64,000 nucleotides of DNA from Tilletia caries. Taxonomy: Eukaryota > Basidiomycota > Exobasidiomycetes > Tilletiales > Tilletiaceae. The stretch covers positions 1 through 64,000 of the forward strand of contig JALUTQ010000039.1 of the NCBI GenBank assembly GCA_032718865.1, given 5' to 3'. Position 1 is the first letter of the stretch. The number at the start of each line of letters is the position of its first letter. A program made the translations under genes and the position numbers. Below the pieces are notes generated by a model, which worked only from the letters and a program-made list of their open reading frames with translations, was not told the origin of the DNA and searched no databases. This document shows, piece by piece, positions 34,658-49,004 of the stretch.

Positions 34658-34813
34658 AAGGGCCTGTACCTGTAGCATACCTCGCACAATTATTATTGTC
34701 AAGTCACGATTGATTGTTGATCGCTTGCTTCGATGTCATGGTCTTTGTTGAGATGGACCACGTGATGGAAGCGCGCGCTGAGATGGAAGAACAAGACGGA
34801 GAGAGCGAGAGAG

Positions 34814-34911
34814 TATGGAACGCGGAACCCGCCACCTTTTCCAACGTCGATCGTCCAACGTCGATCACCCAACGCCCACCACATTCGACAGGACAACACC
34901 ACAACACACCA
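34814..34911 (+). repeat. Left terminal inverted repeat of the integrase/PHD transposon
   Basis: 98 bp, identical to the reverse complement of 46279-46376. It contains the direct repeat CAACGTCGATC twice, a likely transposase-binding motif. Confidence 0.92.
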
Positions 34912-36962
34912 TAACTTGATCATCTTCTCTTTATTTCTGCAGGCTACATTCTTGTGAGCAAGCGTCAATTGCTTCTGCGCTCTGCCTTCCTCTTCGTGAG
35001 TCTTGACGTTTCTTGCGCTCTCTCGTTGCGTTGGTGTCTGGATCTGTATTCTTTGAACTCTCTCTTACTCTTTCTTTCGCTTCACAGTCGGACTCATCCA
35101 TCGGCATTGCCGTGTCCCTGTGCGCGCTGCGGCGAGCTGCGTGCTCCGTTTGCCGGCCTTTCGACGGACATCTTGAGGACTGTGGCCCATCTCAAGGACT
35201 GTGGCCTGCGCAGCACCTGAGAGGTATCACGTAAGTCTCGCTCTTTCTCTTCCGTTCCCTTGGGTGATTGGGTCTGTTCTCGTGACTGACTCCTCTACTC
35301 CTGATGATCACTGTCCCTCTTTTCTCATTCTCTTTCTTAAGCACAACTCCTACGTTCTGGTTCCTTTCCAGCCTCTGAAATCTGGCTGCTGGCTGTTGTG
35401 TGAGTTCCGGGGGCTATTCGGAGTTGAGGAATGGTATGCCTTACTTCACACCAGTCGGAACATGCTCTCATCCTCTGTTTCTCTCTGTCCAACCTTCGCG
35501 TCTCAGAATCTCAGCTCCTCAATGAACGAATTGCAGCAAGAGGCCCATGTGTTGCTCCCCGCCGAGGTTCTGCAGGGTTTGGAGCAAGCGGAAGAGGGAT
35601 TACTGCCGTTCCGCTCATTCGTCGAAGACGTCGATCGCGATGTCATGGTCATTCCGTCTCACCTCGTTGCCCTCCAGGAGCTCATCGACGCCTTTTCATC
35701 CATCGCTGACGCGATTCCTTCTCGCGAATTCAACTCTATGATGCGTCAAATGTTATTCATTCGTGAACAACTCGACTACTTCGAGCGCACCATGCCACAG
35801 ACATCTGTCCAGGCGACGTTGGAGAGGACGGCTCGCGGTCAATTGAAGATTTCCATCGACAGCAACACGCTCTGCGAACTTGTTGAAAAAGAATTCTCAG
35901 ATTCAACCATCGCAATAATGTTGGGCACTTCTTTACGCACAGTTGAGCGCCGTCGAGCTGAGCTCGGGTTGCGCAAGAGGGGAGGTCCAGCAATTTCAGA
36001 TGAGGAGCTTCATGCTGTGAGTCGTTTTTGTCATGGCACCCACGTCCTCACTATTGACGGGTGTAATTTCACTTTCCTTCTTCATCCAGGCCATTCGATC
36101 CACATACACACAGGGGTTCAGTGCGGGCGAGAGAGGGATGCGCGGTGCTCTTCGATGCGTTGGGGTACGCGTCAGTCGGGAGCGTATGCGCTTGGCGATG
36201 CAAGAAGTCGATCCCCAACAACTTCAAGCGCGATGGGCGAAGACGATCCGACGACGCGACTATTACGTGCCGTTCGTCAACAGCCTCTGGCACGTCGACG
36301 GACACCATAAGCTCATCAGGTACAAGATCGTGATTCATGGGGGTATAGATGGGAAAAGCCGTGTTGTGACATTCATGCAGGCCAATTCGAACAACCGTGC
36401 CGATACTGTTGCCTCCTGCTTCCGAGCAGCAACGCAACAATGGGGATGGCCAAGTCGCGTTTGTGCCGACCATGGCGGAGAGAATCTAAAGATCAAAGCC
36501 ATGATGGAGCATGCTCGTGGTGGGTAGCAATGTAGCGTTGTCACCTAACATCTTCCCGCATCTAAACTTCTTTCCTTTCAGGCCATCACAGGGGCTCATT
36601 TGTTCAAGGACCATCTACCCGGAACCAGCGAATTGAGCGGCTGTGGGTCGATCTACAAGCATGGACGACCGGCACGTACAAGACCATCTTCGGTCAACTA
36701 GAGGCAGACGGGCTCCTCGACACCGCCTCCCCGGTTCATCTCTGGTGCCTTCACCTCGTTTTCTTGCCGTAATTGAACAAAGCTCTCGCTCACTTCCAAG
36801 ATGCCTGGAATCGTCATCCTATGAGGACCGCAGGGAAGAATTGGAGCCCAGAACAGATGCACACTGCAGGTACGAGTCAAAATCAAATGGATTACAATTG
36901 GAGATTATTAAGAAACTGAATGTGCCACTTTTCGGTCTTTCTTCAGGAGTGTTGGAGGCGGA

Positions 36963-37567
36963 TGTTGTAAACACTAGGTGCTCAGTGCTCGACTACTCAC
37001 CTTGGGAGGACCGACAAGGTGGAGGAGAGAGGCCGACGTCGCTTGACGAGTCGCAGGAGCAATCCCAGTATCTCAGGTTCGGTGTCGGACGGTCAGCTAC
37101 GTAGTACCCCCTCGCAATGAGGGCGAAGTGACGTGCTGCCAGAACTCTAGCCTATGCCTGAAGATACGGAAAGGATGCAACCTTTGACGGGGAAGTCAAG
37201 GATGAGGGCGAGAAGGTAAAAGATGAGGAGGACGAGGTCAAAGGTGAGGAGGACGAGGTCAAAGGTGAGGAGGTGACGAGGGAGAGTGGAAGCAGGAACG
37301 TGTGTGGTGAATTTCAATAGGAGCGGGGGAAACAGTGGTGGTGGAAAGTGCCTGCTTATATAGCTTTGTGGGTACAGGGGGAGGACAGCCATTGCGCAAT
37401 GAACAATGTGTGCCACATCGTTGCGCAACGATTTCGTGTCACAAACGCAGGAATCGATGAGACTGGAAGTGGAGTCACAAATGAGACTAAGGGTCTCATC
37501 TATATAGGAAAGACTGTGGAAAGGTCACAACCACGTGGAGGTTGCTATGAAGATGCAATCTTCAACA
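36963..37567 (-). repeat. 3' LTR of copia element 1
   Basis: Begins (minus strand) TGTTGAAG right after a polypurine tract (gagagggag) and ends TTTACAACA. It contains a TATATAAG box, the palindrome CGTTGCGCAACG, a 21-bp tandem repeat (about 37218-37270, GAGGACGAGGTCAAAGGTGAG-like) and a GTGAGT splice-donor-like site near its end. No equal LTR exists at the other end of the element. Confidence 0.65.
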
Positions 37568-37612
37568 CTCCCTCTCAACCGCAGCGTGGTTGCTGAAGTC
37601 GAGTGATGACCG

Positions 37613-40600
37613 TCAGACGACGTTGGCGGGGTCGAGCAGACCAAGACTGCTCCGATGCTTGACGAGGACGGGAGTCGGAGTGGCCTTGGTGAAGATGTCG
37701 GCCACTTGATCCGAAGTACCAACGTATTCAAGCTTGATCGCACCTTCTTCAACTTGCCAGCGGACAAAGTGGTAGCGAAGGTCGATGTGCTTGGTGCGTC
37801 GATGCCATCCAGGGTTCTGTGCGAGGGCGATGGAACCCTGGTTGTCGCCCTTCAGGACAATGCCGACAGCCTGAGGAGCGGTCTGGTCGTACGCGAGAAC
37901 GGCTGTACGAAGCCAGATGGCGTCCTTGACGGCCTCGGTGAGGGCGACGTACTCTGACTCAACTGAGGACAGAGAAACGCATTGCTGGCGAAGGGAACCC
38001 CAGCTGACGGTTGCGCCGTACAGCTTGAAGACGTACCCAGACTGAGAGCGGCGGTCTTCGACGTTTCCGGCCCAGTCGGCGTCGGAGTAGCCAGTAAGCT
38101 CGGGCTGTCCGTCGATCTTGACGGGAGCGAGGACCAGTGCCAAGTCTCGCGTTGCCTTGAGGTAGCGGAGGACGCGAAGGGCAGCTTGGTAATGAGCCTG
38201 AGTCGGGCAGCCATTGAAACGGGAGAGCGCGCTGACGACAAAGCTGACGTCAGGCCTGGTGGAGAGGGCGATCCACATCAAGCAACCGATCAGGGCTTGG
38301 AAAAGCTGGGCGTCCGTCAAAGGCACTCCCTCTGGGACGAGCTTAGTTCCGACCGCCATAGGAGAGGACTCCGGGCGACAGTTGGTCATGTTGAAACGCT
38401 CCAGGACTGTGTCGATGTAATGACCTTGGCTGAGGGCGAAGCCGTTGTCGAGCTGCTGGACCTTGATTCCAAGTACCGAGCTGACGAGACCAATGTCGGT
38501 CATTCTATAGGAGGCCTTGAGGCCCTCGCGAACGGAGTCGATGAGGGCCTGAGTCTTCGCAGCGATCAGGAAGTCGTCGACGTAGACGAAAACGATCGTG
38601 CGGTTGCCGTTGGGTTCGACGCGAACGAAAATGCCCCAATCGGCGTCGCTGTGAACAAACCCGAGGTCGCGTAGTTTGGAAACGACATCGAGCCACCAGA
38701 GGCGAGCTGACTGCTTGAAGCCGTAGAGTCCCTTGCGGACAAGAAGCCCAGTCGCCTTGGGATCTTGCTGCTTCCACCCCTCCGGAAAGCTGATGTAGAG
38801 GACGCGATCCATTTTTGGGGTTGAGAAAGGCTGTCTCGGCGTCCATCTGCCAGACCATAAGTCCCTGGACCGCAGCTTCGACAAAGAAGATCCTCAAGCT
38901 CGTCATGCGTCCGACTGGCGCATATGTCTCGTCGTAATCGATGCCGTAGCGCTGAGTGAAGCCACGACCAACAAGACGAGCCTTGTGCTTGAGGTAGTTG
39001 CCGTCTGCGTCCCTCTTAGTCTTGCAGACCCACTTGGTCGATACGACCTTGGCGCCGGGAGGGAGGACCACCTCCTCGAGCGTCTCGTTCTTGATCAGAG
39101 ACTCCAGCTCCGCTTCGAAAGCCTTGGCCCACTGCTGACGCTCAGGACTCGACATGGCGTCGCCGTAGCTTGTGGGGTCGTCGTCGACGAGGGCAATCTT
39201 ACAAAGAAACCCTTCCGACTCCTGCATGAACGCTGCGTACGTGTCCCGAAAAGCAGACAAACGTTGACCGCGGCCAGCGCGCGCAGGAAGCCGGCGAATG
39301 CCTTGAGGTCGATCGGCCACGGCAGGACTGTTGCCGGGCGCATGATTCACCCCCTCGGGCTCAGGGCGTTTGCGGCCAAGAGGAAGAAGTTCGACATTAT
39401 TGGCGTCGGGACCTGTCTCCGCGTCATCGTCGGAAATGTCTTCCTCGTCGTACTCGAGGAAGCCGGGATCACCAGGCTCCACGTCCAGCTGGACGATGTT
39501 GGAAGGCTCGGAGACCTCGGTGACTTTGGACGAGAGCTTGGGGCCGAAAGAGACGTTGCGGGAGAAGACAATCTTCCCCGTGGTCTCGTTGTGCACCCCC
39601 CAGCCGCTGCGCTGTGTCGGCCAGCTGACCAAACGTCCCTTCCAGGCCTTGGGAGTGGTGAGGTCCGACTTGGTGCGGTTAGCGGCGGGAATATGAACCC
39701 AGCATGGAGAACCGAATGCTCGAGTCTTGCCAAGGGAGGGTTTGCGCTTGTGTACCCACTCCCAAACCGTCCGACCGTCTTTGACGAAGGTTACCTTCAT
39801 GAGCAACACCGCAGCGAATAAAATCGCATGTCCCCACCACTGAACCGGGAGGCCGCTACTGTGAAGCATGGCGGCGGTCATCTCCTTGAGGGTACGATTC
39901 TTGCGCTCAGCCACACCGTTGAGTTCCGGGGTGTGGGGCGTTGTGATGTGGTGGAGGATGCCCTGAGAAGCAGTCCAGGTGGACATGTGCTTGTTGACGT
40001 ACTCGCCGCCGCCGTCGGTGCGAATGACTTGCACCTTGGTGCCGAAAGTCCGTTCGGCTACCTTGACGAACTCAACAAGGCGAGCGAAAACCTCGGCCTT
40101 GGAGCGGAGTAAGTCGACCTTGGTGTAGTCCGTGTACTCGTCAATGAAGGTCGCGTAGTACTGGAAACCACCAAAACAAGTCACCAAGGGACCGCCAACA
40201 TCCGTGAGGATGATCTCCAGCGGAGAACTCGCGTGGAGAGGCGCGTCGTTGAACGGTCGACGGGTAGACTTGGTAGCTTCGCAGCTATCGCACCAAGGCG
40301 TGGCATCGTTCAGCCCAGGAATGGGAGGAAGATGACCCGAACGGACGAGCTTCTTGATGGTGCTGAAGCCCAAGTGGCCGAGGCGAATGTGAACCTCGAG
40401 AGCGGGATCGCGCTGAGCGGGCTGCATTGGTGCCAGCATCGCTGAGGGAGACGATGTGGAGGCCGCAAGGTCGGCGTGTAACAGCAGCCATCGAGCTCGA
40501 CCACGCTTGGTCAAAGGCATGCGCCAAGAGGCGTTGTCCTTGTGCTTGAGGTGGGCGTTGTCATCCTCGTCGATGACTTTGATCCAGCCACGCTCGCGCA

Positions 40601-40988
40601 GCAGTTCCTCCGAAAGCAAGTTGACTCCGGCGCCGGGGAGAAGCACAACGTCCAGGAAAGAGACGCGGCGGCCGGAGGGAAGAAGTCCAGTGACATCGCC
40701 GATGTGGTCGGATGCCTGCTTGGAGCCAACCGTCTTAAAGGTCAAGGTCTTGTCCGCTTTCCGAGAGTTGAGGAGCAGCTCGGGTCGGTCGACAATGTGC
40801 TGTGATGCACCAGAGTCGATCATGAAGGGAATCAAGGTCGACGTCGTGGAGGCGGCAAGAACGGAGGGCTCAAACATGGCTGCGAGCATCTCGTCGGCGT
40901 CTGATAAGACTCGAGGGCGGCGGCAGCCTTTCGGGACGACGAAGTCGACTTGGGACACTCGGACTTGACGTGGCCTTGCTTGTGGCAT
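37613..40988 (-). pseudogene. Copia element 1 Pol (protease-integrase-RT-RNase H), frameshifted
   Basis: Copia order, with integrase before RT. Protease active site DSGASQHIV, integrase zinc motif (HIRLGHLG..CDSCEATK), and integrase catalytic core with Asp in ILTDVGGPL, Asp in IRTDGGGEY and Glu in NGVAERKNR. RT follows from WVCKTKRDADG through FVYVDDFLIA, then RNase H (TGYSDADWAG, SSVESEYVALTEA) to the TKHIDLRYHFVR end. One frame break in a T-run of the + strand (38812-38816) separates the integrase/RT start (38818-40988) from the rest of RT and RNase H (37613 to about 38815). A single-base change there would rejoin them. Confidence 0.88.
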
Positions 40989-41904
40989 GTCCAGCAGATC
41001 GGACCATTGCCGGGAAGAAGGTGGCTCGCGACTGGACAGTCAGGACGTTCGTGGTCGCGAGCACCACAGCCGTAGCAGAGCAGACGCTTGCTGTTGCCGT
41101 TGCTGTTGCCCTTGCCCTTGCTGCTGCCGGAGGTCGCCTGAGAAGAAGAAGGCGAAGAAGAAGACTTCTTCTTGCCGCCACCCGAAGAGGACTTGCCGGA
41201 GCGGGCCTTGTTTGCCACGCCCTTGATGGCGATGTGGAGATGTTGGCTGGCAGCGGCCATTGCCATGGCGTTGGCGCTGCGCTCCGCCGTGTGCTTCTGA
41301 GAAGCGTTCTCCTCGTTGTAGACCCGGACGAGCTGCAAAAAAAGGTCCGCTCGTCCTTCGGAAGCTGCCGCCACTCCGTCCTGACAACCCTGAGCGAATA
41401 AGGAAGGGTGTCGAGGAAACGGTCGCACTTGTCTTTGTCCTCCGTGCCCCAAGGAAGACCCGCCGCGCTCGCCTCAGCCACCAGCTCCATGTAGGAGTTG
41501 AGGTGCTGGACCATGTCTCCGCCCTCGTCGAGAAAGAGGTTCGCCATCTTGCGGTTGATGGCGCTCCGATGATCCGAGGAACCCAAGTCGTGAAGACTGG
41601 CGAGGAGGGACCACATGTCGGCGGACGAGGAGAGGTCTCGAATCATGGCCTTGAGGGCCCCGCTGACCGTCTTGCGGAGGTAGGACATGGCCTTGGCGTC
41701 CCTGTCCTTCCAGGACTCGGACAGGCGCACATCGGTGGAGGTGGCGTTGGGCGGCAGAGTTGGCTGAGTCTCGACGCCGCGGACAATGTCGAACGCGCGG
41801 ATGCCGATGAAGACGGGCTCGATTGCCTCTCGCCAGGCGAAGAAGTTTTCGAGGCCGACGAGGGAAAGAATGCCGGAGATGGCGGAGGAGTTGGTGTCGT
41901 CCAT
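40832..41904 (-). pseudogene. Copia element 1 Gag, frameshifted
   Basis: The start ATG at 41904 gives MDDTNSSAISGILSL, then a copia Gag (LENFFAWREAIEPVF, LHDLGSSDHRSAINRKM). The frame breaks in a run of seven A (41337-41343, + strand) and continues in the next frame. A Ser/Lys-rich region is followed by two CCHC knuckles (CYGCGARDHERPDC, CWTCHKQGHVKSEC), then overlap with the start of Pol in another frame. Gag and Pol overlap over about 150 nt, so a frameshift would be needed for Pol expression even without the A-run break. Confidence 0.82.
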
Positions 41905-42454
41905 GTCGAAGAAGAGAGGCAGAGAAGGAAGAAGACCGAGGGCCGAAGAAAGAAGAGGATCGGAGGTCGAGAAGACTGGAGAGTCGAGGACGAGGCGGGA
42001 GCGATAACGCAGAAACCGCAGGACGAGATCGAAGGCGACGCAGAGCAGAAGAAAGGCTCTCGAAGTCGCGGTCGAGGAGGTCGAGGCCAGCGAGGGCACA
42101 AGAACGAAGAGAGAAAGCCGAAAGGCAAGTCTTGCTCGGGCCTTGGATGCTTGAAGAAAACCTTGGATCCGTCTTGGGAGGACCGACAAGGTGGAGATCG
42201 AAGGTCGAGGTGTGCGAGGAGGACCAGAAGCAGCACCGAAAACAGAGTGGTAGGTTGGCAGGCGGCGGAGAACCAGCGGCAAGCGGAGAACCGACAGCAA
42301 TCGTGGAGAACCAGCGATTCGTGAGGACAAGGTCGAAAATCGAAATCGATGAAGACGAGGTCGAGGATGGCAGAGACGAGATCGACGAGGACGAGGACGA
42401 GGACGAGAAGAAAGTCCACGGACAGGAGCAGAGGGAAGAAAGGAGCAGAGCTAG

Positions 42455-42468
42455 TCAGACTCTTAATC
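42455..42468 (-). promoter_or_regulatory. Putative primer-binding site, half tRNA-Lys(CUU) type
   Basis: On the element's strand GATTAAGAGTCTGA follows directly after the ..TTCACAACA end of the 80-bp terminal unit. Its complement TCAGACTCTTAATC equals the anticodon arm of tRNA-Lys(CUU), as is usual for copia-type elements primed by a cleaved 5' tRNA half. Confidence 0.5.
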
Positions 42469-42897
42469 TGTTGTGAACATTCTACCACTATACTAAAAGG
42501 TGAGACCAGTCTCGACCCAAGTGTCATGGATGATGCATATATCCAACACTCCCTCTCATCATCATGACCCTTTGGTCTAGACTGGTCTCACCTTTTAGTA
42601 TAGTGGTAGAATGTTCACAACAGATTAAGAGTCTGATCGACTCTGTCGTGAGTTCGATTCCCGGTATCTCCAGACTTCTTTTCCGACATTTTCTTGTCGG
42701 GTGCTTGTCGGGTTTTTTCACAGCACGTGCTCCGGGTACTCCGGGCCGAAAGAGTCTCACCCCTAGTCCTATGGGGTCTCGCGTCTCAGACCAAAGGGTC
42801 ATGATGATGAGAGGGAGTGTTGGATATATGCATCATCCATGACACTTGGGTCGAGACTGGTCTCACCTTTTAGTATAGTGGTAGAATGTTCACAACA
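42469..42897. repeat. 110-bp perfect inverted repeat around a tRNA-like spacer
   Basis: Arms 42469-42578 and 42788-42897 are exact inverted copies. Each contains an 80-bp TGTTG..CAACA unit preceded by a polypurine tract. The 209-bp spacer holds a third partial copy of the unit that runs on through the Lys anticodon-arm sequence, then an A-box/B-box pair, a tRNA 3'-end-like stretch (TTCGATTCCCGGTATCTCCA) and a T6 run. It looks like the product of aberrant strong-stop or primer copying at the 5' end of the element. Confidence 0.7.
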
Positions 42898-43283
42898 GCG
42901 GAGAGGAAAGGATTCGATCTGCGTCAGTCGCCGGAGCACTTGGAGGACGTTGAAGCTTCGGATGAGCTTGGACAGTATGCTCTCCGAAACTTCGCCGAGT
43001 ATGGGGATGATGCTGCGCGTGGAGGAAGGGAGCGGAGAGAGGAGGACCCTCATGTCGCAGTGAATCCGGTCGAGCGCCATCTGCCTGCTCCCCTACTTGA
43101 TCCCGATGTTCGTGCGTGGATCGAAGCTCAAGTCCCATCAGTCTGGCCGCCAGAAGAAGACATGGGGGTAGGGAGGTACTCACGAGCGTTGGAAGTAGCA
43201 GTGGAAGCTCTGGAGATGGCAGGTTGGATGTAAATTTGCATAGACCAGACATGAATTAGATCGATCGTGCTCACATGTCTATC

Positions 43284-45679
43284 TTATGGTTTCTTCGGGA
43301 TCAGTCCAGCGAGCTTGCAGACGGCGCATCTCCAGGCCTTTCCAGCACGAGGCTTCTCGTGTCGAAGCCCACCTTGCGCGACGACCTCCAAACAGTCGGA
43401 GTGATACTGTGAAAACAGAATGGGAATTGAGTGAAAAGACGTCGACTGGCGCCTAGCCTATGCCATAGCCGGATACACACCCACTGTTGGCAAGAGATGA
43501 CGTCGCAACAGACCCAGAAAATCTCCTGGAAAACGTAGATAATTTCATCAGCATGATTTCTAATCCCTCCAGGGTCCAGGCCACCAACTACAGTGACGCC
43601 AGCTGCCCGCAGTTCAACATACAGGTGATTTCAGTTTACCATTGCCCTGTCCAGTCTCGTCTTCCGACCATGGCTCCGGCGTCTCTTTCTTGTTGCACAC
43701 TGGGCAGATCTGCTTCTTTGGATCGTTCTTCGGATCGACTTTTACCTTATACTGTTGCTGTGTTGAGCCGCAACCTTTCTTTGACGTAGCAGACGGCGCC
43801 GCATGCCGCTCCTTCCCTGCACTGTCGGAAGTACCTGACAACTTTCGCTGGGATTGAGGATGGAGAAGTAGAAGTAAACATGAGTCAGAGACTCAGCGGA
43901 GAAGATTCATGCGTTTGTCAGTGTGGAAACCCCTCTCACCTTCTTGTCCTTCTTGGCCTTGGCTTCCACCGCCGCAATCTTGCGATTCAGCGGGCCGGCG
44001 CCTTCGGCACCTTCTGCGTCCGGTTCTGCATCACTATGCTCGTCGCTGGAAATCTCTATCTGTGAGCGATGAGCATGAGAAGATATGAGTAACCGGAAGG
44101 AGAAGAAAGAGGAACGTCGTCAGAGGAGTTGCTTTGTTGAAATAAATCAGGCTTATAGAACTCACGATCTCGTTAGTGACCTTTGATGCACCCTCCACCT
44201 TGACACCGCCCCCCTCAACTTTGACGCGTGGTTTGGCGTCACAGCTGTGGTTGGTAAGAAACTTAGCAGGCATAATAGCCCCACAAAAGTCGCATTGGGA
44301 TCCCGCAGCACTCGTGTGGCTCGGCGGGAACGTGCGTGACGAGGCCTTTCCACCGGGGACGTGCTTCACCGTCTCGAACGCAACCTCCAAGGAGGGCGTT
44401 CCATGCGGAAGAGGGGGGAAGATGGTTTCGGGTGGGTGAGGGCGCAGTGAGACCACATAGGCCTGCTTTCGGGCAAAGATGGCTAGAACGCTTCCGGGTC
44501 CAGCATGCCAACAGGCTCAGATGCGTTAATGTTTTGGTCTGTCAGAGAGAGAGTCGCCAAGCGATGGCCCGCGCCGCTGCCATTTGTGGAACACCATCTG
44601 TGAATTTAGCACTATCATTTATCAGAATCATGGAGCGGCACGCAGCGTGACTAGAGAAAGAGAAAAGGAATGTATGATGCTCTCACCGAAACCCATACTT
44701 CAGCAAGTCGTCTTGGTAAGGTCGCAACGATGTAAAGAGGCATTCCCAAACGTCGTCACCGGAGCTACCGCCAGTGATGGACGGTGAACTGATGACGCAA
44801 CACCACTGGGCCAAGACCTCATGGAAGTTGGGCGTAGCAACGCGAGCCCCCACCTTGTGCCAAGGAATGTAGTAGATCTGTCGGGAACAACCCTTATCGT
44901 AACGTTAGCCTATACTGCAACTCGCAGACCCAACGAGCCTCAGCCACACATGACAAACTCACGCGATCGTTGTGGAGTTTGACCTTGACCGGCTCATCAA
45001 CACTAATAGACGCAGTCGACGCAGCCTTCATCGAGGCGTGACGTTGCGTCGGGAAAGAGGTACCAGACGTAGCGTGGACACGCAGCGATGACGGGCCTGC
45101 TTGCGAACTCATTGCTCTGATTCTTTGTGCGGCCTGAAAGGCTGGTGCCGCAGGTGCCGCCGCAGGTCCTCCCCTTCCCGCCATAGATAGCGAGGTCATG
45201 GCCGGACGTGCCGGCATAGTGGTTGCTGGAAAGTGATTGAGATCGCGTCAGCATTGATCAAATCGAAGTATGCACAGAGCCTGGAACTGGAATGACGCGC
45301 AAGCCTATCTCACCGTGGCCATGGGTCTGAGTCTGAGAGGCAGAAGCATGCTGCGGCATCGGCGGGACGGCCAGTCTTTCACTCAATTGCTGTCGCAAAA
45401 ACATGTTATCCTCTCGGAGACCTCTATGCTCCTCGCGCATTATGTCAAAATCACGGCGAGACAGTTGCTGGTAGGGTTGAGATGGAGTGTGATGCTAGTC
45501 AGTGCCCAGCCTCTGGTGAATATCCAGCGATGTATATCTCACGATGACTGGCGACCCGGACGCAAGGGCAGCATTCGTTGCGCGTGCTGTCATGAAAAAA
45601 AAGTGACAACTGTCAATAGTCATCACTGTATGAGAGATGGTGCGTATGTGGGCTCACGGGGAGTATTGGGATCATGCAT
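43284..45679 (-). pseudogene. PHD-finger protein of the transposon, one frameshift
   Basis: Ten exons on the minus strand: 45679-45658, 45586-45543, 45467-45314, 45225-44963, 44877-44687, 44597-44166, 44059-43940, 43847-43623, 43525-43481 and 43406-43284. All splice phases agree except exon 6, which is one base short: the frame hits TAG at 44485-44483, where a +1 change would restore it. The product would have about 530 aa. Seen: a coiled coil (REEHRG..FLRQQLSER), a conserved-looking block (IYYIPWHKVGARVATPNF), and a CxxC..H..C zinc-finger-like segment (CDFCGAIMPAKFLTNHSC). The C-terminal PHD finger is ICPVCNKKE, then WVCCDVISCQQW-YHSDC and WRCAVCK. PHD fingers read histone H3 tails, so it may steer insertion to chromatin, but that is inference. 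Confidence 0.7.
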
Positions 45680-46278
45680 TCCAGATGTTTTCCCTGCCGC
45701 TGCTAGAATTAGAAAGATCCATGTCAAGCTTCCGCGTCGATGACAGAGAGCCAGGCTGACCAGGACTACTCACAAGTGCGACGCGAAAAGGAGAAGGGGG
45801 GCGAGAAGGACGGACGCGAGATGCAGGAATGGTTCTGGAAGCGCAGATGAATGGATGAGCAGGAGTGACCGCGGAGGAGTTGCCGGGTAGACACGCAGGA
45901 CGATGGGATGAACGGAATGGTTGTGCAAGGATAAGGAAGGCGTCAGCAGCTGCCAAGGAAAGAGAACAGGCAGTTGGACCAGAGATACTCACAACGCGCG
46001 CGCGACGAAGACAGCCGCAAAGATAGATGGGTGAGGCGGAAGAAGGAGACAGCACCGAGCCACCGAGGGGATGATGAGCCGAGGAGGACACTGGAGAGCA
46101 GTGAGCCGTCAGCCGGGCACGGGGCAGCGCTGCTTGGTGCTGGAGCGGAAGTGATGCGCGGAAGTAGATATGATATGTATGAGTCAGTGAGGTTTGGAGT
46201 TGATTGCACAGCATGCAGTGCTCACTCACTCAAATGCGGTCGAGAGACAAAGAAGTTGATGGTGAAGTGCTTTGGTGG

Positions 46279-46376
46279 TGGTGTGTTGTGGTGTTGTCCT
46301 GTCGAATGTGGTGGGCGTTGGGTGATCGACGTTGGACGATCGACGTTGGAAAAGGTGGCGGGTTCCGCGTTCCATA
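46279..46376 (-). repeat. Right terminal inverted repeat of the integrase/PHD transposon
   Basis: Exact inverted partner of the left repeat. Immediately outside it lies AGAGAG, and the MPP-alpha gene starts 174 bp further on, so the transposon sits in that gene's promoter region. Confidence 0.92.
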
Positions 46377-46550
46377 AGAGAGCGAGAATCAGGAGGACGT
46401 CCATCACAACACATTCGTTCATTCTTGCGCTCGCATCGCCTTGCCATTCTCGCCTGCCCTCGTCTCTGTGCGCTGAGCTTCTCGTCCTCGCCCCCAGTGC
46501 GCATACACTCGACCCATCAGCTGGAACTCGTCCTTGACCCGGTGGCAGCC

Positions 46551-49004
46551 ATGCAGACCTCCCACATCCTGCGCAGAGCAGCAACAGCAACAGCGGCAGC
46601 AGCGAGTGCCGGCGTGATCCCGTCCTCGTCGTCAGTGCTGCGGCGCGCATTGACTCCGACTTCCACGCTGCTGTCCGGCGCATCGACCGCGAGATTATTG
46701 TCGGTGGCAGGCTCCTCGTCCTCACCACAGCAGCAACAGTCACAACATCGTCGCAGCGGTCGACTGCCGCGCGCGCCCCTCTCTTCACAGCTAGCGCGAG
46801 CGCTCGAAGCGTCGTCAAGGACATACGCATCCGCTGCGGCCGCGTCGGCACCCATTCCGACCTCGGCCCTCGTCGAAATCTCGCGATTGCCAAATCAGGT
46901 CATGGTCGCCACAGAGGCAACTCCCGGCCATTTCTCCTCGCTGGGCATCTACGTCAATGTGGGCAGCCGGTACGAGCGTCAGTACGTGCCCGGCGAGAGC
47001 GGAGTGTGTCACTTACTGGATCGGATGGCATTCAAGGTATGTTTTTCCCGCACCCTCCCCCGTTGCAGGGTCGGCACCTCGCTTGCTGATCGCGCATTCT
47101 ATGTACCTTTTTGATTACCGCCCCTCTGATCCGAGCAGAGTACGTCAAGAAGAACGGCAGAAGACATGACGACGGAAATCTCTCAGCTTGGCGGCAACTT
47201 CTTCTGCTCCTCCTCCCGCGAAACGCTCATGTACCAGGCCTCCATCTTCAACCAGGACCTCGAGGCCGCCCTCGACGTCCTCGCGGACACGGTGCTCAAC
47301 CCACTCCTTTCGGATGAGGAGCTCGCGATGCAGAAGGAAGCAGCTGCATACGAGATACGCGAAATTGCAGAAAAGCCAGAGATGATGTTGCCTGAGATCC
47401 TGCATCACGTCGCCTACGCCAACAACACCCTTGGCAACCCTCTCCTGTGCCCTCCCGAATCACTACCAGTCATGAGCGCTCGGACGCTGCGCGACTTTGT
47501 GGACGCGTGGTATACCCCTGACCGCATAGTCGTAGCAGGCGCAGGCATGTCTCACCAGGCGCTCGTCGACATCGCCCAGAAGCACTTTGGCCATCTCCCA
47601 GCCAGAGATGCCTTCCCCGACGGATCATTACATCTCTCTAGCTCCAGCTCATCAGGTTCAGCCTCATCGCGGTCCGCCAGTCCATCCCCGTCCTTGAGCA
47701 GTAGCTCAGGCACGCTCTCCACCTCTAGCGTCAGTATTGCCGACTTCTCCACTTCCTCTCTACGACCCGCCCAGCACGCCCCAGCATCCGAACTGTCTCT
47801 AGCGGCGCAGGCGAGCGCCTCTGCGATATATACCGGTGGAGAGCAGTACATATCTTCCCCCGAGCTTGAGTTCACCCACGTCTACGTCGCCTTTGAAGGT
47901 TTCTCAGTGCACGACGACGATATTTATGCACTGGCGACAATCCAGATCCTACTTGGCGGAGGTGGCAGCTTCAGCGCTGGTGGGCCGGGCAAAGGCATGT
48001 ACTCGCGCCTCTATTCCAATGTCCTGAACCGCCATCACCAGGTCGACTTCTGCGCCGCGTTCCACCACTGCTACAACGACAGCGGTCTCTTTGGCATCGC
48101 TGCCAGCGTGCACCACAGCTTCGTCGGAAGCGTTCCACAAATCATCGCTCGCGAGCTCGAGTCGCTCATGGATGCCAATTCACGAACGGCTGTAACGCAG
48201 GCGGAGCTCAGTCGGGCTCGCAACCAACTTAAGAGCAGTCTCGTCATGGCGCTCGAGAGTCGGCTGGTGGAGGTGGAGGATCTGGGCAGACAGGTCCAGG
48301 TGCATGGGAAGAAGGTCAGCGTGGAGGAGATGTGCGCTAAGATCGATCAGGTGGACCTGCCCAAGCTACGTCGTGTGGCTGCTCGTGTCCTGAGGCCTAC
48401 GATCACGGCTTCGTCTCGTGGGTCCGGGATGCCGACTGTGGTCGCGCAGGGGTCGCTCGAAGGGCTCGGCGACGTCCGGTCCTACCTTGCGAACAGGGGA
48501 TTGGGTCTTGCGCCGAACAGCACTGACACTGCTGCATCGGCGAGCCCTGGCTCCGTTCCGCGGCAGGGTCTCTTCCGTCGGACATTCCTGGGTAGTGGTG
48601 GTAGCGGTGAGGCCTCATCCTCGCGCGGTCTGCACACATCGGCTCGCGTCGCTGCGGAGCGTCCATCATCAAGTGAAGAGATCCCGAAGTTCTTCCGCCC
48701 ACAAAATCGCGAAGAGCGACGTTCCTCCGAGGGCCCTCCCTCTCGGCACGTCCTCTTCTACCGGGACATCGTACCTCCGCTCTTCCGTGTTCTCGCCTAC
48801 GGTTCCATCGTGTACTTTGGTCTGCACCTGGGCTGGGTCCTCCTCGATCGCGAGGAGCAAGATGCGCGGCATGCCTCTGAGATCGGCACTTTGCAACGGG
48901 AGATTAGCCAGCTGAAGGAGGACACGGAGAGCGGGGTTGCGAGAGTAGCGGATCGAGCGGAGACAAAGGCCAAGTCGTGGTGGTCTAGTCTGGTTGGCAG
49001 ATGA
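46551..49004 (+). CDS. MAS2: Mitochondrial processing peptidase alpha subunit with C-terminal extension
   Basis: Non-catalytic, substrate-recognising subunit of the peptidase that removes presequences in the mitochondrial matrix. Exons 46551-47036 and 47139-49004, 783 aa, longer than the usual ~500. Arg/Ser/Ala-rich presequence, then LVEISRLPNQVMVATE, LLDRMAFKSTSRRTAEDM, LGGNFFCSSSRE and the glycine-rich substrate loop GGGGSFSAGGPGKGMYSRLY (about 434-453). No HxxEH zinc site, as expected for alpha. A Ser-rich insert lies at about 325-385. After the M16 fold ends (about residue 620) comes a segment like a second presequence (SSRGLHTSARVAAERP), then one membrane span (about 708-731, FRVLAYGSIVYFGLHLGWVLL) and a coiled coil. 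The tail looks like a separate small inner-membrane protein fused on. Confidence 0.9.

What the first reader, a model, noticed from the sequence alone, without database searches (positions are those of the whole stretch)
34814..46376. Complete TIR transposon pairing an IS3EU-like integrase with a PHD-finger gene
Seen: 98-bp perfect TIRs, a 6-bp duplication, and two convergent multi-exon genes that each start near a TIR and end 50 bp apart. One is an integrase-core DDE protein with an HTH. The other ends in a PHD finger and has a coiled coil. Fungal genomes carry many integrase-core genes, usually annotated as host genes without element boundaries. A defined element with a chromatin-reader partner would explain them and suggests histone-guided targeting.
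Basis: partly seen in the sequence, partly recalled or inferred. Interest (0 to 1): 0.88.

Follow-up and report, generated by a model that had tools for sequence, protein, structure and literature searches.

The report
Fungal jumping gene with PHD-finger partner
A wheat-bunt fungus carries DNA transposons that pair a cut-and-paste enzyme with a separate protein ending in a PHD finger, a two-gene layout resembling the ancestor of our antibody-gene recombinase that might steer the element toward gene starts.

Summary
The anatomy holds: perfect 98-bp TIRs (TATGG..CCATA), 6-bp flanks AGAGAG, an rva_4 integrase and a convergent PHD-finger gene about 50 bp apart. "Complete" does not: the integrase has an in-frame stop and is split by a 5,935-bp copia-type LTR element, and the partner has a 22-bp gap against a sister copy. 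Best protein match is Tilletia laevis. The element belongs to a mobile IS3EU-like group: 184 and 11 terminal motifs of two types; of 20 TIR pairs examined 15 have 6-bp and 3 have 7-bp exact duplications (0 of 306 mismatched pairs among the first 18). The partner is a stable component: 18 of 19 partner loci lie beside and convergent to an rva_4 locus, and exons show far more silent than amino-acid change between families. One multicopy family has no PHD that I could find. Histone-guided targeting is suggested, not shown: nearest reading frames point away from insertions in 24 of 34 flanks (exploratory) but 5 of 8 in a small fresh set (inconclusive). I file it as IS3EU-like with a new partner.

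The parts
34808..34813 (.). left copy of 6-bp target duplication AGAGAG
   Evidence: GA-rich flank
34814..34911 (+). left TIR, 98 bp, begins TATGGAACGCGG
35522..36016 (+). integrase exon 1 (model), HTH-like end
   Evidence: coordinates; model by eye, relatives
36090..36519 (+). integrase exon 2 with first part of rva_4 core
36582..36869 (+). integrase exon 3, rest of core; in-frame TAA at 36770-36772
36947..36962 (+). start of integrase exon 4, cut by LTR element
36963..42897 (-). inserted copia-type LTR retroelement (5,935 bp), TG..CA ends, GCGGA duplicated; later passenger, not part of the transposon
42898..43233 (+). integrase C-terminal exon resumes, stop 43231-43233
43284..43406 (-). partner last exon, PHD second half (YHSDC..WRCAVC)
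43481..43525 (-). partner exon, PHD middle (EIFWVCCDVISCQQW)
   Evidence: same splicing in annotated P0123
43617..43853 (-). partner exon with first PHD cysteines (CPVC)
44157..44300 (-). partner segment with CxxC..H..C motif
44686..44883 (-). partner N-domain exon shared across families
45421..45440 (-). start of coiled-coil-like N-terminal segment of partner
   Evidence: P0123; judged by eye
46279..46376 (-). right TIR, 98 bp
46377..46382 (.). right copy of target duplication AGAGAG

Best explanation
This is a broken copy of an IS3EU-like cut-and-paste DNA transposon of a Tilletia bunt fungus. The rva_4 DDE protein is inferred to bind the TIRs, cut the element out and insert it with a staggered cut that leaves about 6 bp duplicated. 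A second, convergent gene encodes a partner protein with a conserved N-terminal region, a CxxC..H..C motif and, in most families read, a C-terminal PHD finger. I infer that the partner joins the transposase complex and tethers it to histone H3 tails, probably methylated at lysine 4, which would bias insertion to gene 5' ends. Shown: TIRs, duplications, multiple insertions, gene pairing, conservation. Inferred: catalysis, complex formation, histone binding, targeting. This copy is probably no longer autonomous but may still be mobilised through its intact TIRs.
For: TIR and duplication; rva_4 domain and D227, D284, E319 in the relative P0001; 2,150-bp deletion derivative with the same TIRs and GTCGAC duplication; sister copy with both genes at 94-96% nucleotide identity; 18 of 19 partner loci beside an rva_4 locus; near-identical copies at different sites, 99.4% between C15 and C36; silent sites far more changed than amino-acid sites in partner exons, 9 comparisons; weak best PDB matches are PHD fingers of ALFIN-LIKE and ING proteins, E 0.0051 and 0.044, which I recall as H3K4me readers; frames point away from insertions in 24 of 34 flanks, window control 45%.
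Against: The seven-copy C36/C11/C23/C27/C39/C5 family shows no PHD in the one copy read in full, so the PHD is dispensable there or was missed. PF00628 finds 21 places in the genome, only 1 within 3 kb of an rva_4 locus and 1 about 10 kb away, because these PHDs are divergent and split by introns. Several ING-like ones score below the Pfam cut-off. Structure models were useless (mean pLDDT 38.5 and 32.2). 2 of 20 TIR pairs have no duplication.
Confidence: 0.85

Rival explanations
1. The partner's PHD finger is not a targeting device but blocks silencing or binds the transposase or DNA; the element simply lands in open promoter DNA.
For: Retroviral-type integrases often favour open chromatin (recalled); one family seems to do without a PHD; rust IS3EU families carry other partner types, alpha-kinase and TET/JBP (passages).
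Against: PHD cysteine/histidine pattern kept across diverged families, weakly nearest to ING and ALFIN-LIKE PHDs.
Confidence: 0.45
2. The two genes are host genes that merely sit between two unrelated inverted repeats.
For: The databases list them as hypothetical or PHD-type proteins of Tilletia.
Against: Multiple copies at different sites with TIRs and duplications, and the gene pair travels together.
Confidence: 0.02
3. The PHD gene was captured recently by this one element.
For: PHD relatives were found only in Tilletia by two searches.
Against: Convergent PHD partners in families whose integrases are only about 35-80% identical in protein and saturated silent sites.
Confidence: 0.05

Closest known systems
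IS3EU superfamily (fungal TET+ families of rusts, PMC12730594, passages seen; PMC10045372, passages)
   Same: TAYGG..CCRTA termini, TIRs over 30 bp, 6-bp duplications, DDE transposase with a second gene in opposite orientation.
   Different: There the second gene is an alpha-kinase, with a TET/JBP gene between; here a PHD-finger protein. An alpha-kinase search of this genome found nothing but its control was silent too.
Styx of Zymoseptoria (PMC10853768, passages)
   Same: IS3EU-related fungal element with extra coding sequences; ancestor proposed to encode two proteins; degenerate copies still move.
   Different: 'PHD' does not occur in its main text; sequences were not compared here.
RAG-like (RAG1L-RAG2L) transposons (PMC7204232 and PMC8355894, passages)
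   Same: TIR element with two convergent genes, DDE enzyme plus a partner ending in a PHD finger after an acidic stretch; RAG2 PHD reads methylated H3K4.
   Different: Different DDE family, 5-bp duplications, kelch propeller in RAG2; none found here. Resemblance of layout, not membership.
Ginger1-9_HM and Rehavkus (PMC2836005 and PMC6446971, passages)
   Same: DNA transposons that encode a PHD finger.
   Different: There it is reported inside the transposase, not in a separate convergent gene.

Membership tests
IS3EU | Termini TA..TA, in rust families TAYGG..CCRTA | tested here: met
   TATGG..CCATA
IS3EU | 6-bp target duplications | tested here: met
   15 of 20 pairs exact 6 bp, 3 exact 7 bp, 2 none; one of the 15 rests on reading a nested insertion
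IS3EU | IS3-like DDE transposase core | tested here: met
   PF24764 rva_4; D-D-E with 56 and 34 residues between. That rva_4 equals the IS3EU core is my inference
IS3EU | Transposase groups with reference IS3EU in a tree | not tested
   No Repbase sequences at hand
IS3EU | Alpha-kinase partner (rust TET+ families only) | tested here: inconclusive
   0 matches, but the control genomes were silent too
RAG-like transposon | 5-bp target duplications | tested here: not met
   6 bp, some 7 bp
RAG-like transposon | Partner with kelch propeller plus PHD | tested here: not met
   No kelch family in P0121-type partners scanned P0122, P0123, P0127, P0128 at E up to 1
RAG-like transposon | Convergent DDE and PHD genes inside TIRs | tested here: met
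H3K4-methyl reader PHD | Binding to methylated H3 tail | not testable with these tools
   Only weak sequence likeness

The most novel reading that the evidence does not exclude
Tilletia IS3EU-like transposons independently evolved the RAG1/RAG2 logic: a DDE transposase plus a convergently encoded partner whose C-terminal PHD finger reads H3K4 methylation and delivers new insertions to gene 5' ends.
Probability: 0.3. Interest if true: 0.85.

Novelty: new variant of a known kind. Interest (0 to 1): 0.62.

Why it matters
It gives element boundaries to a class of fungal integrase-core genes usually listed as host proteins, adds a chromatin-reader-type partner to the IS3EU group, and offers a fungal parallel to RAG1/RAG2 in which it can be tested whether a transposon-encoded PHD finger steers insertion. 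The families with and without a detectable PHD in one genome form a natural comparison.

Tried and rejected
Structure prediction of two partners gave unusable models, so no fold search was run. tRNA scan of the window found none. Pfam PHD alone does not reveal the transposon PHDs. An alpha-kinase partner was looked for and not found, with a silent control. The L011 and C35 scores are circular because both were in that profile; the independent values are 0.036 and 0.0006. An integrase dN/dS comparison failed to find its segment. A host-gene explanation and a recent-capture explanation were rejected (see rivals). The pair C7:1276967/1305943 was left out of the duplication count: 29 kb apart, and its flanks are reverse complements of each other, as after an inversion.

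Targeting: the idea came from the same 36 flanks that give 24 of 34, so that number is exploratory; the two flanks of a site are not independent, and the control is one 52-kb region. A larger test on 18 fresh sites was written down first but could not be run.

Full report
Observation. The window holds two 98-bp arms, 34814-34911 and 46279-46376, that are perfect inverted copies, with AGAGAG on both outer sides. Between them lie an rva_4 integrase gene on + and a convergent gene on - whose last exons form a C4HC3 PHD finger. Their stops are about 50 bp apart. A separately annotated Tilletia laevis protein, P0123, named PHD-type domain-containing by a source, has the same PHD splicing.

This copy is broken. 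A copia-type LTR element of 5,935 bp (36963-42897) with TG..CA ends and a GCGGA duplication splits the integrase; the sister copy on C25 is uninterrupted there. The integrase has an in-frame TAA, and the partner has a 22-bp gap against the sister copy. The sister copy itself lacks the left end and holds another insertion. So 'complete' is not right.

Organism. The integrase of a relative at C21 equals a Tilletia laevis protein over 500 residues; 575 proteins passed the threshold among 7,996 scored, 120 were listed, with other Tilletia next and then other basidiomycetes, and later Rhizophagus and animals. The species of the window is therefore Tilletia, probably of the laevis/caries/controversa group (inference).

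Family and mobility. The 98-bp TIR has three further matches outside the window. One pair bounds a 2,150-bp deletion derivative with GTCGAC on both sides. The related end TATGGAACGCCGTT occurs 184 times against 1 for the reversed control pattern, TATGGAACGCGGAACC 11 times against 0. Of the 184, 100 were listed; they give 42 adjacent facing pairs, 30 under 3 kb with no rva_4 inside and 12 of 3.5 kb or more, 9 of them with rva_4 inside (positions typed). Duplications: of 18 pairs, 12 have exact 6 bp, 3 exact 7 bp, 3 none, against 0 of 306 non-partner combinations. One of the three is explained as a 6-bp AACGCG duplication once a nested element is recognised; the undivided target is the TIR of the C5 copy, a within-genome empty site. 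Two further pairs around nested elements have exact 6 bp. Total: 15, 3 and 2 of 20. Some copies at different places are 99.4% alike; C11 and C23 copies share their flank and are a duplicated segment, not two insertions.

Gene pairing. The rva_4 search gave 82 matches, which I grouped by hand into 39 loci. Three searches with partner pieces hit 19 distinct places; 18 lie 0.9 to 10.4 kb from an rva_4 locus and convergent to it, and one, C21:613600, with two stops, has none near. About 2% of the genome lies that close. The PHD cysteine pattern itself was read at 19 of 39 loci: 12 by searches and 7 by weaker means, namely C6, C22, C35, C5:1769380 and C1:235309 by profile or eye and C7:192640 and C5:1424376 by pattern. 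The family at C36:554544, C11, C23, C27, C39:794287 and C5:2003148 showed none; one copy was read in full and has a CxxC..H..C motif but no PHD that I could see. The remaining loci were fragments or not read. In nine exon comparisons between families silent change is near saturation (proportion 0.76-0.89 in five, against 0.19-0.41 for amino-acid change) or dN/dS is 0.07-0.47 (four), so the partner appears selected.

Mechanism. The DDE core and termini point to cut-and-paste movement (inference from family). The PHD finger's weak nearest solved relatives are ALFIN-LIKE 1 (E 0.0051) and ING2 (E 0.044); that these read methylated H3K4 is recalled. In 36 host flanks the longest frame of at least 100 residues points away from the insertion in 24 of 34 (window control 45%, p 0.003); for frames of at least 200 residues 12 of 14 (p 0.002); 11 of 36 flanks have such a frame starting within 350 bp, 5.0 expected (p 0.008). 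In 11 fresh flanks, 8 had a frame and 5 pointed away, control 34-46% by length: no decision. So promoter bias is a lead.

Known relatives. Passages of PMC12730594 give TAYGG..CCRTA ends, 6-bp duplications and an alpha-kinase gene opposite the transposase for rust IS3EU. RAG-like transposons share the convergent DDE-plus-PHD layout but differ in duplication length and partner core. PHD fingers inside transposases are known in Ginger1-9_HM and Rehavkus. Full-text searches for IS3EU with 'PHD finger' and for PHD finger, DNA transposon, integrase core domain and fungi found no paper; two other searches gave no IS3EU case with a PHD in what was listed. This library is open-access only, so absence from print is not shown.

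Verdict. A real, IS3EU-like transposon group with a conserved PHD partner; the copy in the window is degenerate; targeting is open.

Noticed in passing
46376-46551: The element ends about 175 bp upstream of the ATG of a host gene (46551) whose start looks like a mitochondrial processing peptidase subunit, named by eye only.
   Followed up: partly
42446-42898: Palindromic repeat structure with 111-nt perfect arms at the end of the LTR insertion; parts of it recur beside the rva_4 locus C1:1707500 (L019).
   Followed up: partly
L080, L081 (C7:1276967 and 1305943): Two facing TIR ends 29 kb apart whose outer flanks are reverse complements of each other, as if an inversion or duplication joined them.
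   Followed up: no
C1:311709, C1:1751282, C1:468682: Three non-autonomous copies have exact 7-bp rather than 6-bp duplications.
   Followed up: partly
L037 2418-3118: About 700-bp insertion with 21-bp inverted ends in the sister copy, MITE-like.
   Followed up: no
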